From Saccharopolyspora phatthalungensis (GTDB taxonomy: Bacteria; Actinomycetota; Actinomycetes; Mycobacteriales; Pseudonocardiaceae), in NCBI RefSeq assembly GCF_014203395.1, contig NZ_JACHIW010000001.1, positions 3,145,501 through 3,209,500 on the forward strand: DNA of 64,000 nt. Direction: 5' to 3'. The position numbers and the translations under genes were made by a program. A model generated the notes under the pieces. The model saw nothing but the letters and a program-made list of their open reading frames with translations. It was not told the origin of the DNA and did not search any database. Within the stretch, counting starts at the first letter, position 1, and each line of letters opens with the position of its first letter. This document shows positions 3,182-6,225 of the stretch, in pieces.

Positions 3182-4225
3182 ATGCGGCTCGCTGTGATCC
3201 CCGGCGACGGGATCGGGCCGGAGGTGGTGGCCGAGGCGCTCAAGGTCCTCGGTGAGGTCGTGCCGGATATCGAGATCACTCGATACGACCTGGGCGCCGC
3301 CCGTTGGCACGCGACCGGGGAGCTGCTGCCCGAGTCCGTTCTCGGGGAACTCCGCCAGCACGACGCGATCCTGCTCGGCGCGGTGGGCGATCCGTCCGTG
3401 CCCAGCGGGATCCTGGAGCGCGGCCTGCTCCTGCGGCTGCGTTTCGAGCTTGACCACCACGTGAACCTGCGGCCGGCCCGGCTGTACCCGGGTGTGAAGA
3501 GCCCGGTGGCCGATCCCGGTGAGATCGACATGGTCGTGGTGCGCGAGGGCACCGAGGGCCCGTACGCGGGTAACGGCGGCCTGCTGCGCAAGGACACCAC
3601 GCACGAGATCGCGACCGAGGTCAGCATCAACACCGCGTTCGGCGTGGAGCGGGTGGTGCGCGATGCGTTCGCCCGCGCCGCCTCGCGGCCACGCAAGCAC
3701 CTGACGCTGGTGCACAAGACCAACGTGCTCACCCACGCCGGTTCGTTGTGGTCGCGCGTGGTCGAAGAGGTCTCGCTGCAGTACCCGGACGTCACCGTGG
3801 CCTACCAGCATGTGGACGCGACCACGATCCACCTGGTCACCGACCCGGGCCGGTTCGATGTGATCGTCACCGACAACCTCTTCGGCGACATCATCACCGA
3901 CCTGGCCGGCGCGATCACCGGCGGCATCGGGCTGGCCGCCAGCGGCAACATCGACGCCACCCGGCGCAACCCGAGCATGTTCGAGCCGGTGCACGGCAGC
4001 GCGCCGGACATCGCCGGGCAGGGCGTGGCGGATCCGACCGCGGCGGTGCTGTCGGTCGCGATGCTGCTCGATCACGTCGGCCTGTCCGAGGCCGCCAAGC
4101 GAGTCGAGGCGTCGGTGGCGTTCGACCTGGCCACCCGCGACCACGCGGCGCCGGGCGCGACCTTCGCGATCGGCGACCGCCTCGCGGCCCTGGTCTCCTC
4201 CCGCGAGGTCGCTCCGCAGGCCTGA
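3182..4225 (+). CDS. leuB: 3-isopropylmalate dehydrogenase
   Basis: LeuB oxidatively decarboxylates 3-isopropylmalate to 2-oxoisocaproate with NAD+ in leucine synthesis; the same enzyme usually acts on 3-methylmalate in the citramalate route to isoleucine. The 347-residue protein starts with the family signature [10 protein letters not shown], carries [12 protein letters not shown] and HKTN in the middle, and [12 protein letters not shown], the metal-binding Asp motif, near residue 230, then [12 protein letters not shown]. The ATG has a GGGAGG Shine-Dalgarno. A candidate operator lies upstream and a strong terminator follows, so it is probably a single-gene unit next to cimA. Confidence 0.97.
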
Positions 4226-4237
4226 ACCAGGTAATCA

Positions 4238-4272
4238 CGAAAAGGGCGTCCCGGGGCGGGGCGCCCTTTTCG
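4238..4272 (+). terminator. leuB terminator
   Basis: An 11-bp perfect stem, CGAAAAGGGCG (4238-4248) with CGCCCTTTTCG (4262-4272), starts 12 bases after the leuB stop. The loop is 13 bases. Confidence 0.8.
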
Positions 4273-4398: not shown

Positions 4399-4426
4399 TT
4401 GCACACCGGGTGGGTTGTGGCAGCAT
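4399..4426 (+). promoter_or_regulatory. Candidate cimA leader promoter
   Basis: TTGCAC (4399-4404), 16-base spacer, CAGCAT (4421-4426). The first G of the leader-peptide GTG lies seven bases after the -10 element, so the leader peptide may be leaderless. Confidence 0.45.
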
Positions 4427-4432
4427 AGGGCC

Positions 4433-4477
4433 GTGGCTTTCCGCAGTCTGATCATTATTGGCAAGCGCGCCGGGTAA
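4433..4477 (+). CDS. cimA leader peptide with Leu-Ile-Ile-Ile
   Basis: A 14-codon frame from GTG to TAA reads (M)AFRSLIIIGKRAG. Residues 6-9 are Leu-Ile-Ile-Ile, written CTG ATC ATT ATT; ATT is an unfavoured Ile codon in DNA this GC-rich. The frame ends inside the 5' arm of an 11-bp hairpin and is followed by a second hairpin and six T's, the layout of a ribosome-mediated attenuator. The downstream gene is cimA, which feeds isoleucine synthesis, so starvation for isoleucine (perhaps leucine as well) would stall the ribosome on these codons. Translation of the peptide is inferred from this match of codons, structure and pathway. There is no Shine-Dalgarno; leaderless initiation is assumed. Confidence 0.7.
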   Translation: MAFRSLIIIGKRAG

Positions 4478-4529
4478 CGACTCCGCACCCCGGCGCGCTG
4501 ACCTCTCGCATCCGCGGGGGGTCTTTTTT
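4464..4529 (+). promoter_or_regulatory. Transcription attenuator of cimA
   Basis: Hairpin 1:2 is AGCGCGCCGGG (4464-4474) with its perfect complement at 4489-4499. The terminator is GACCTC (4500-4505) with GGGGTC (4518-4523, one G-U pair) followed by TTTTTT (4524-4529). A competing antiterminator can form between 4488-4497 (CCCC, bulged GG, CGCG) and 4513-4520 (CGCGGGGG), which removes the G-run needed by the terminator. A ribosome stalled on the Ile codons (4451-4459) would cover the 5' arm of 1:2 and free 4489-4499 for the antiterminator. The pairings were found by eye, without energies. Confidence 0.65.
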
Positions 4530-4587
4530 GTTGCCAGCACAGGGCGCCGCACCCGATCTCCATCTTCAACGCCGACGGGAGAAACAA

Positions 4588-6225
4588 GTGACCCGCACCA
4601 ACCCGGCCGGAACGCCTCTGGGCGACGATTTCCACGTCTACGACACGACCCTGCGGGACGGCGCGCAGCGCGAGGGCATTTCCTACTCGGTCACCGACAA
4701 ACTCGCGGTAGCGCGCCTGCTGGACTCGTTGGGAGTCGGTTTCATCGAGGGCGGTTGGCCGGGCGCGCTGCCCAAGGACACCGAGTTCTTCCACCGCGCG
4801 GCCGAAGGCGAACTCGACCTGCGGCACGCCGCGCTGGTGGCCTTCGGCTCCACCCGTCGCGCAGGGGCCAAAGTGGACGAAGATCAGCAGGTGCGGGCGC
4901 TGCTCGACTCGGGTGCCCCGGTGGTGACATTGGTGGCCAAATCGGACCGCCGGCACATCGAGCGAGCATTGCGCACCGATGTGGCCGAGAACTGCGCGAT
5001 GGTGGCGGACACCGTCCGCCACCTGGTCGGCGAGGGTCGCCGGGTGTTTCTCGATGCCGAGCATTTCTTCGACGGCTACGCCTTCGACCCCGACACTTCA
5101 CTGCGCGTGCTGGAAGCCGCCGCCAACGCGGGCGCCGATGTCGTCGTGTTGTGCGACACCAACGGCGGCCAATTGCCGCTGCAACTGGCCGAGACGGTCG
5201 GCGAAGTCCTTTCACGCACGGGGTTGCGCATCGGAATCCACTGCCAGGACGACACCGGCTGCGCCGTTGCCAACAGTGTCGCGGCCGTGCAAGCCGGCGC
5301 GACACACGTGCAATTCACCGCCAACGGCTACGGCGAACGCGCGGGCAACGCGGATCTGTTCGCCGTGATCGGCAATCTCGCGGCAAAACTGGAGATGCCG
5401 GTGTTGCCGGAGGGCAAGCTGCGCGAGCTGACCAGGGTTTCGCACGCGCTGGCCGAAATCGCCAACCTCGCGCCGGATACCCACCAGGCCTACGTTGGCC
5501 AGTCGACCTTCGCGCACAAGGCGGGTCTGCATGCGAGTGCGATCAAGGTGGACCCGGAGCTGTACAACCACATCGATCCGGCCGTGGTGGGCAACGGGAT
5601 GCGGGTCCTGGTCACCGAAATGGCCGGGCGCGCCAGCCTGGAGCTCAAGGGCGCCGAGCTCGGTCTCGATCTCACCGAGTCGCCGGCCGCCGTGACCGGG
5701 GCGGTGCGTCAGGTCAAGGAACTCGAAGCCCGCGGCTGGTCCTTCGAGGCTGCCGACGCCTCGCTGGAACTGTTGCTGCGCCGCGAAATGGCCGCCGCGG
5801 AGGGCACCGAACCGGTCGACGGGCCGTTCGAACTGGAGTCGTACCGGGTGGTGCTCGACCACCGCTCGGACGGCGAAGTGGTTTCCGAGGCGACCGTCAA
5901 GGTGCACGTGGCGGGGGAGCGTGTGATCGCCACCGCCGAGGGAAACGGGCCGGTCAACGCGCTCGATGCCGCGCTGCGCAAGGCGCTGGTGCCACACCTG
6001 CCGTGGCTGCAAGCCGTCGAGCTCGCCGACTACAAGGTGCGCATCCTCACCGACGCCCCGGGCACCGACGCGGTCACGCGCGTGCTCGTGGAATCCCGCG
6101 ACGGGGAGGAGGAATGGACCACTGTGGGCGTGCACGGCAACATCGTCGAGGCGAGCTGGCTGGCCCTGTGCGATGCATTGGCGTACAAGGCCCTGGACCG
6201 CAACGCGGTCGGCGCCCGGAGCTGA
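4588..6225 (+). CDS. cimA: Citramalate synthase
   Basis: The product belongs to the citramalate synthase branch of the isopropylmalate-synthase-like DRE-TIM metallolyases, which condense acetyl-CoA with pyruvate to give (R)-citramalate. LeuCD and LeuB then convert this to 2-oxobutyrate for isoleucine. The 545-residue protein has DTTLRDGAQREGIS at about 19-32, the metal-binding region FTANGYGERAGN at about 250, STFAHKAGLHASAI at about 315, and a C-terminal regulatory-type domain (about 400-540). GTG at 4588 follows GGGAGAAACAA and starts just before the conserved part; an ATG 60 bases upstream would only add a non-conserved extension. Expression is probably set by the attenuator upstream. Substrate choice is by family, not proven here. 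Confidence 0.85.
   Translation: MTRTNPAGTPLGDDFHVYDTTLRDGAQREGISYSVTDKLAVARLLDSLGVGFIEGGWPGALPKDTEFFHRAAEGELDLRHAALVAFGSTRRAGAKVDEDQQVRALLDSGAPVVTLVAKSDRRHIERALRTDVAENCAMVADTVRHLVGEGRRVFLDAEHFFDGYAFDPDTSLRVLEAAANAGADVVVLCDTNGGQLPLQLAETVGEVLSRTGLRIGIHCQDDTGCAVANSVAAVQAGATHVQFTANGYGERAGNADLFAVIGNLAAKLEMPVLPEGKLRELTRVSHALAEIANLAPDTHQAYVGQSTFAHKAGLHASAIKVDPELYNHIDPAVVGNGMRVLVTEMAGRASLELKGAELGLDLTESPAAVTGAVRQVKELEARGWSFEAADASLELLLRREMAAAEGTEPVDGPFELESYRVVLDHRSDGEVVSEATVKVHVAGERVIATAEGNGPVNALDAALRKALVPHLPWLQAVELADYKVRILTDAPGTDAVTRVLVESRDGEEEWTTVGVHGNIVEASWLALCDALAYKALDRNAVGARS

What the first reader, a model, noticed from the sequence alone, without database searches (positions are those of the whole stretch)
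4433..4529. Isoleucine-responsive attenuator in front of citramalate synthase
A 14-codon leader frame (4433-4477) holds Leu-Ile-Ile-Ile, two of the Ile codons being the unfavoured ATT. It ends inside an 11-bp hairpin (4464-4474/4489-4499), which is followed by a second stem (4500-4505/4518-4523) and six T's. An alternative pairing 4488-4497 with 4513-4520 would destroy the terminator. The gene controlled, cimA, starts the threonine-independent isoleucine route. Codons, structures and pathway agree. Attenuation by leader peptides is known for ilv, leu and trp genes in actinobacteria; I do not know of a described case for cimA.
Basis: partly seen in the sequence, partly recalled or inferred. Interest (0 to 1): 0.82.

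Follow-up and report, generated by a model that had tools for sequence, protein, structure and literature searches.

The report
Isoleucine-sensing switch before cimA gene
Just ahead of an isoleucine-synthesis gene, this soil bacterium encodes a tiny peptide with a run of isoleucines whose translation very probably decides whether the gene is transcribed, and the same arrangement is found in front of this gene in many actinomycetes.

Summary
Window 4433-4529 has a 14-codon frame (V A F R S L I I I G K R A G stop) starting 6 nt after an extended -10 box, so probably leaderless. An 11-bp hairpin (P1) overlaps its end; a 10-bp intrinsic terminator with six T follows. All 140 sampled family genomes with cimA carry the element; a 141st region, before a second cimA copy, does not. 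The two codons nearest P1 are Ile in 133 of 133 distinct sequences; one is ATT in 123, against 10 ATT in 359 Ile codons of 30 cimA genes. P1 and terminator covary. A covariance model matches 170 of 296 genomes of the class; 115 of 116 placeable matches lie just upstream of cimA. It also scores the ilvB leader of the same genome: probably a paralogue of known actinobacterial ilvB attenuators.

How termination is relieved remains open. My eight searches of the held papers found no description of a cimA attenuator.

The parts
4240..4270 (+). Inverted repeat AAAAGGGCG/CGCCCTTTT after leuB (stop codon ends at 4225), probably the leuB terminator; suggests that cimA starts a new transcription unit
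   Evidence: read from sequence; its 13-nt loop is beyond the limit of the scan, which did not list it
4399..4404 (+). Candidate -35 TTGCAC, 16 nt before the -10 hexamer
   Evidence: read from sequence; not tested for conservation; the sigma-70 scan lists no promoter here
4418..4426 (+). Extended -10 box TGG-CAGCAT, 6 nt before the leader start codon
   Evidence: hexamer NAnnnT ends 6-8 nt before the start codon in 135 of 140 relatives, TGn before it in 132 (hexamers sought only 5-9 nt before the start)
4433..4477 (+). Leader ORF VAFRSLIIIGKRAG*, starting at the expected transcript start, probably leaderless
   Evidence: frame conserved in relatives
4451..4459 (+). Regulatory codons ATC ATT ATT (Ile-Ile-Ile)
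   Evidence: last two Ile in 133 of 133 distinct sequences, first Ile in 107 of 133
4464..4499 (+). Hairpin P1, arms 4464-4474 and 4489-4499; its 5' arm is the end of the leader ORF
   Evidence: covariation; fold
4500..4529 (+). Intrinsic terminator: stem 4500-4509/4514-4523, T tract 4524-4529; in the window it directly abuts the 11-bp P1 (one base from the 10 conserved P1 pairs)
4488..4520 (+).
4577..4581 (+). Shine-Dalgarno-like GGGAG of cimA
   Evidence: read from sequence
4588..6225 (+). cimA, citramalate synthase, 545 aa, the regulated gene
   Evidence: TIGR00977 601.3 bits, cut-off 450

Best explanation
This is a ribosome-mediated transcription attenuator that senses charged tRNA-Ile. 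RNA polymerase starts at or next to the GTG at 4433 and a ribosome begins the leaderless 14-codon ORF at once (inferred from the -10 box). With isoleucine plentiful the ribosome passes the Ile codons, terminates and leaves; P1 folds, the terminator stem folds next to it, and transcription stops before cimA (stems shown by covariation, behaviour inferred). When isoleucine is short the ribosome stalls on the last two Ile codons, which hold a fixed place next to the P1 5' arm in the relatives aligned, masks that arm, and the downstream RNA is remodelled so that polymerase reads into cimA (inferred; the antiterminating structure was not identified). Element and ilvB attenuator are paralogues: same leader, P1, terminator layout, with mixed Ile/Leu/Val codons before ilvB and Ile-rich codons before cimA.
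For: All 140 family genomes with a cimA gene, of 150 searched, have the element before it. Ile codons invariant at two positions in 133 of 133, ATT 123 of 133 at one of them against 10 of 359 in cimA genes. Extended -10 at nearly fixed distance. Where an earlier stop arises just after the Ile run (L037, L110, L117, L140), the old stop is lost in three of four. P1 and terminator covariation: 59 cells against 11.2, class-wide 107 against 21.2. Class search: 170 of 296 genomes, 115 of 116 placeable matches 0-500 nt upstream of cimA, 34 not placeable. All 20 f8 genomes listed without cimA also lack the element. The model scores the ilvB leader of the same genome, E 3.9e-6 (ilvB confirmed). Related ilvB leaders are described as attenuators with experimental support in C. 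glutamicum (PMC11857589) and M. tuberculosis (PMC13236596).
Against: No expression data. No antiterminator helix: terminator probability stays near 1 with the ribosome stalled, no third covarying helix. In S. coelicolor, changes in the ilvB leader codons did not affect regulation, as reported in PMC1262725. cimA is found without the leader in 16 of 20 regions taken from class genomes without a match. In several families the stop lies one or two codons after the Ile run, so stalled and terminating ribosomes differ little in position.
Confidence: 0.85

Rival explanations
1. The same attenuator, with exactly the reader's switch: the P1 3' arm (4488-4497) pairs with the terminator 3' arm (4513-4520) when the ribosome stalls.
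For: Drawable in the window. In partial transcripts with the P1 5' arm fully masked it is favoured in 62 of 140 relatives with 5 nt of the terminator 3' arm out; with a ribosome on the stop codon in 80 of 140. 83.7 percent of cells pair. The G-run with two G-U wobbles in the terminator could serve two partners.
Against: No covariation beyond shuffles (2 cells against 1.6); native pairs no better than swapped terminators (62 against 74-76 of 140); with 10 nt of the 3' arm out favoured in only 2 of 140 under full masking and 9 of 140 with the ribosome on the stop.
Confidence: 0.2
2. Attenuator without an antiterminator helix: P1, which lies one nucleotide from the terminator, promotes termination itself, and a ribosome masking P1 weakens termination directly.
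For: One-nucleotide spacing in 132 of 133 aligned sequences; the eight strongest pairs of the class-wide list, and six of the nine strongest of the family list, are P1 or terminator pairs; the terminator also persists in every state folded for five ilvB leaders.
Against: A 10-bp stem with six T should terminate alone; published models of ilvB leaders invoke an antiterminator (PMC10272879, PMC11857589, PMC13236596).
Confidence: 0.2
3. The RNA binds isoleucine or a protein directly; the short frame is incidental.
For: Strong structure with covariation.
Against: The last two Ile codons vary only at synonymous third positions; P1 loop variable in sequence and length; no Rfam match at gathering score here.
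Confidence: 0.04
4. The leader senses general translation speed or all branched-chain amino acids rather than isoleucine.
For: A Val or Leu codon often precedes the Ile run; one of the five ilvB leaders seen also ends in Ile-Ile (L202).
Against: Only Ile at the two positions next to P1 in 133 of 133 family sequences; four of the five ilvB leaders seen mix Leu, Val and Ile there.
Confidence: 0.08

Closest known systems
ilvB leader-peptide attenuators of actinobacteria (Seliverstov 2005, PMC1262725; S. lividans IlvL, PMC8079986; Corynebacterium ilvB-II motif, PMC10272879 and PMC11857589; M. tuberculosis ilvB1, PMC13236596)
   Same: Short ORF rich in branched-chain codons, hairpin at its end, adjacent terminator, leaderless in S. 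lividans and nearly so in C. glutamicum; the covariance model of the cimA element also scores the ilvB leader of this genome.
   Different: Other gene and entry step (citramalate synthase); Ile codons next to P1; in this genome it occurs about 7 kb beyond the ilvB copy in one gene cluster.
Classical trp/his/ilv attenuators of enterobacteria (recalled)
   Same: Control codons a few codons before the stop, hairpin over the ORF end, terminator.
   Different: No antiterminator helix detectable here; leaderless start.
Polycysteine leaderless ORFs before cys genes in mycobacteria (cited in passages of PMC13236596; otherwise recalled)
   Same: Leaderless short ORF with a run of the end-product codon.
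   Different: Described there as translation attenuation; here an intrinsic terminator is present.

Membership tests
Leader-peptide transcription attenuator | Translatable short ORF with codons of the pathway's end product | tested here: met
   Ile at two fixed positions in 133 of 133; frame test 106 of 131 against one third by chance; gene is CimA. Translation itself not shown
Leader-peptide transcription attenuator | Intrinsic terminator between leader ORF and gene | tested here: met
Leader-peptide transcription attenuator | Mutually exclusive antiterminator structure | tested here: inconclusive
   Not found by covariation or equilibrium folds; the same folds find none in five ilvB leaders either, so the method may be blind
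Leader-peptide transcription attenuator | Termination depends on charging of the cognate tRNA | not testable with these tools
   needs reporter assays
Actinobacterial ilvB attenuator | Common descent of leader, P1 and terminator | tested here: met
   Model R1 scores the own-genome ilvB leader at E 3.9e-6 when that region is searched directly; the whole-genome searches did not list it and a plain sequence profile did not find it. Four ilvB leaders of other genomes score E 1.9e-9 or better, but they were picked because they matched
Actinobacterial ilvB attenuator | Lies upstream of ilvB | tested here: not met
   Lies upstream of cimA; filed as a paralogue, not as an ilvB attenuator
Riboswitch or T-box in Rfam | Match at gathering score | tested here: not met

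The most novel reading that the evidence does not exclude
A class-wide leader-peptide attenuator that needs no antiterminator: the hairpin over the ORF end lies next to the terminator and is itself the switch, so a stalled ribosome prevents termination by removing that hairpin. If so, the actinobacterial ilvB and cimA leaders would be a distinct mechanistic type of attenuator, duplicated and re-aimed by changing codons only.
Probability: 0.18. Interest if true: 0.75.

Novelty: new member of a known kind. Interest (0 to 1): 0.55.

Why it matters
It would be a gene-control element of primary metabolism shared by species of Streptomyces, Micromonospora, Amycolatopsis, Nonomuraea, Kribbella, Cellulomonas and others (records named, element) for which my paper searches found no description. 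An Ile-only sensor before cimA is independent evidence that the actinobacterial citramalate synthase feeds isoleucine synthesis, in a genome that also has a threonine deaminase. The ilvB/cimA pair shows how one attenuator may be duplicated and re-specified by codons. And P1 and terminator conserved without a visible antiterminator make a testable puzzle about how actinobacterial attenuators switch.

Tried and rejected
P1-loop pairing with the terminator 3' arm (GACUCCGC with GCGGG-GG-GUC), like the published ilvB-II model: 66.4 percent of cells pair and no covariation beyond shuffles (12 cells against 10.7); the loop is poorly alignable, so this is a weak test. A third helix: in the ranked lists of column pairs (only pairs at least 85 percent paired shown) the top eight class-wide and six of the top nine family-wide belong to P1 or terminator; the others do not form a helix. 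Plain sequence profile against the own ilvB region: no hit. Phylum search: 14 genomes outside the class with weak matches (best E 2e-7), not followed up. Rfam weak matches (best 22.5 bits against a cut-off of 50) taken as noise. By my cross-reading of the tables, 166 of 236 class genomes with cimA have a model match, and 4 of 170 matching genomes lack cimA (G369, G387, G392, G409; the one looked at, G409, is ilvB). Of 20 cimA upstream regions from class genomes without a match, four have a recognisable leader by eye (L250, L251, L257, L258); I saw none in the other 16, ten of them from family f32, although one further f32 genome, G454, has a weak match (6.3e-8) that I did not examine. In one search the leader frame was chosen partly by Ile content, so its count (112 of 120 with Ile-Ile) is biased, and it includes some poor calls (such as L236, L238, L283, L320). 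In one search the frame was found from an Ile-like core, but no sequence was dropped; L084, L099 and L110 were corrected afterwards.

Full report
What is there. The window lies in a branched-chain cluster: ilvC ends at 456, serA is 1375-2970, leuB 3182-4225, cimA 4588-6225; ilvB, ilvN and ilvC lie just upstream in the genome (assigned). An inverted repeat at 4240-4270 probably ends the leuB transcript. Then follow an extended -10 box (TGG-CAGCAT, 4418-4426), six bases, and the frame GTG 4433 to TAA 4477, V A F R S L I I I G K R A G. P1 (4464-4474/4489-4499) uses the end of the frame as its 5' arm and the next base begins a 10-bp terminator (4500-4509/4514-4523) followed by six T. The RNA folds far better than its shuffles (z -5.24, 0 of 200). 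CimA is assigned by TIGR00977 at 601 bits, cut-off 450.

Conservation in the family. Of 150 family genomes searched, 140 have a cimA gene (one only in part, one split); the best matches of the other ten are weak, 3.4e-13 at best. I took 141 upstream regions (140 genomes, plus a second copy in one); a profile built from 30 of them finds the element in 140. The one miss, L139, is the second copy and has a cobalamin riboswitch instead (Rfam RF00174, E 1.7e-11). The species of the window was not identified. Leader peptides mostly have the form M/V-x(4)-(I)II-x-x-R-A/V-G-stop; 104 of 140 were called at 14 codons, most others at 13-17 (before three corrections). In the alignment of 133 distinct elements the codon at columns 34-36 is Ile in 133 (ATT 123, ATC 10), at 37-39 Ile in 133 (ATT 71, ATC 62), and at 31-33 Ile in 107. 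In 30 cimA genes Ile codons are ATC 347, ATT 10, ATA 2, so ATT is strongly preferred in the leader. A test that picks the start from the promoter motif, not from the frame, puts it in frame with the Ile codons in 106 of 131, 9 of 140 excluded. A -10-like hexamer ends 6-8 nt before the start codon in 135 of 140 and carries TGn in 132, which fits leaderless translation. Four sequences have an earlier stop right after the Ile run; in three of them the old stop is gone.

Structure. On alignment A1 the two helices show 9 pairs and 59 cells changed on both sides, against 11.2 +/- 2.6 cells in shuffles (0 of 500), and sliding the partner destroys it. On the class-wide alignment A3 (58 distinct rows, one of them a spurious partial match; fitted to the model, so leaning to it) the figure is 107 against 21.2. 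In A1 the spacer between the ten P1 pairs and the terminator is one nucleotide in 132 of 133.

Distribution. A covariance model (R1) matches 164 of 249 genomes of the order and 170 of 296 of the class, 79 of 115 genera; cimA at E 1e-60 or better is in 236 of those 296. Of 150 listed class matches, 116 lie in genomes whose cimA coordinates were listed, and 115 of these are 0-500 nt upstream of cimA on its strand; 34 could not be judged. The 28 loci examined (L173-L200) all lead into cimA at 61-68 percent identity. Of 40 further matches that I chose across families, 34 lead into cimA, 4 into ilvB, 2 into neither. Among 80 records found by CimA, 58 carry the element (59 rows, one a spurious minus-strand match), including Streptomyces, Micromonospora, Nonomuraea, Kribbella, Nakamurella, Cellulomonas and Demequina; 22 do not, two of which have no upstream sequence (L323, L330). 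Outside the class, 14 genomes give weak matches. All 20 f8 genomes listed without cimA also lack the element. Ten f32 regions with cimA show no leader.

Relation to ilvB. The ilvB leader of the same genome encodes MLRLHNILVLPWRVDA with a P1 and a terminator in the same layout, and R1 scores it at E 3.9e-6 when that region is searched; the whole-genome searches did not list it. In two genomes of family f2 both leaders are present; one ilvB leader reads VSKLVLIIERAG, very like cimA leaders. I therefore take the two as paralogues whose specificity differs by codons. The direction of duplication was not tested.

The switch. It can be drawn, and in partial transcripts with the P1 5' arm fully masked it is favoured in 62 of 140 with 5 nt of the terminator 3' arm out, but in only 2 of 140 with 10 nt out; swapping terminators between relatives gives 74-76 at the first point, so the native match is no better than a random one. 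The pairing does not covary, nor does the P1-loop pairing modelled on ilvB-II. With the ribosome stalled or on the stop codon, the terminator dominates in nearly all sequences, in the window itself and in five ilvB leaders. The leading covarying pairs are mainly those of P1 and terminator. Since related ilvB leaders are described as working attenuators (Corynebacterium: PMC10272879, parts 1-3 of 4 read, and PMC11857589, part 1 of 6 and passages read; M. tuberculosis: PMC13236596, passages read, where changing the four control codons to Ala gave low, dose-independent reporter activity), the failure may lie in equilibrium folding. But an attenuator in which P1 itself is the switch is not excluded.

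Literature. In eight searches of the held library I saw no title or abstract start that describes a cimA attenuator or an Ile leader before citramalate synthase; the lists were capped and most papers were not opened. The only paper holding attenuation, leader peptide and citramalate synthase together (PMC13158618, passages read) mentions them apart, in a methanogen study. Seliverstov 2005 (PMC1262725, whole text read) lists ilvB, leuA, trp, cys, leuS, trpS and ileS elements and says that no conserved structures were seen before genes of other amino acid pathways. The S. lividans reannotation (PMC8079986, passages read) lists eight leader peptides, none for cimA. PMC2965389 (passages) does not mention cimA. 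Subscription papers and supplements are not covered.

Verdict. A real, deeply conserved, isoleucine-directed leader-peptide attenuator, a new member of a known kind, with the antiterminating step unresolved and the response to isoleucine still to be measured.

Noticed in passing
L139:1-184 (strand -), G096:C268: A second cimA-like copy (74 percent identity) has a cobalamin riboswitch directly upstream (Rfam RF00174, E 1.7e-11) instead of the Ile leader.
   Followed up: partly
L224:2436-2527 and L226:2436-2526 (strand -): In two genomes of one genus the same kind of attenuator, with Ile-containing leaders (VMFALVIIM and MFTPRIII), stands before a small protein; the one of L224 (107 aa) has a weak ACT-domain match (ACT_4 E 0.0014, below cut-off).
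   Followed up: partly
L241-L247, L259, L260: Family f32 regions with cimA but no leader; several share another conserved stretch (GGCGGCGAACCCGTC or close to it) and a GC-rich inverted repeat without a T tract (by eye).
   Followed up: no
window 4500-4523: The terminator stem keeps two U-G wobble pairs in most relatives (99 and 95 of 133) although a perfect complement would be possible, as if the G-run served a second partner.
   Followed up: partly
L117, L140, L037, L110: Leaders with a stop one codon after the Ile run; the original stop has been lost in three of the four.
   Followed up: yes
G000:C1:1120864-1121994: The genome also has a threonine deaminase over the TIGR01127 cut-off, so two routes to 2-oxobutyrate probably coexist.
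   Followed up: no
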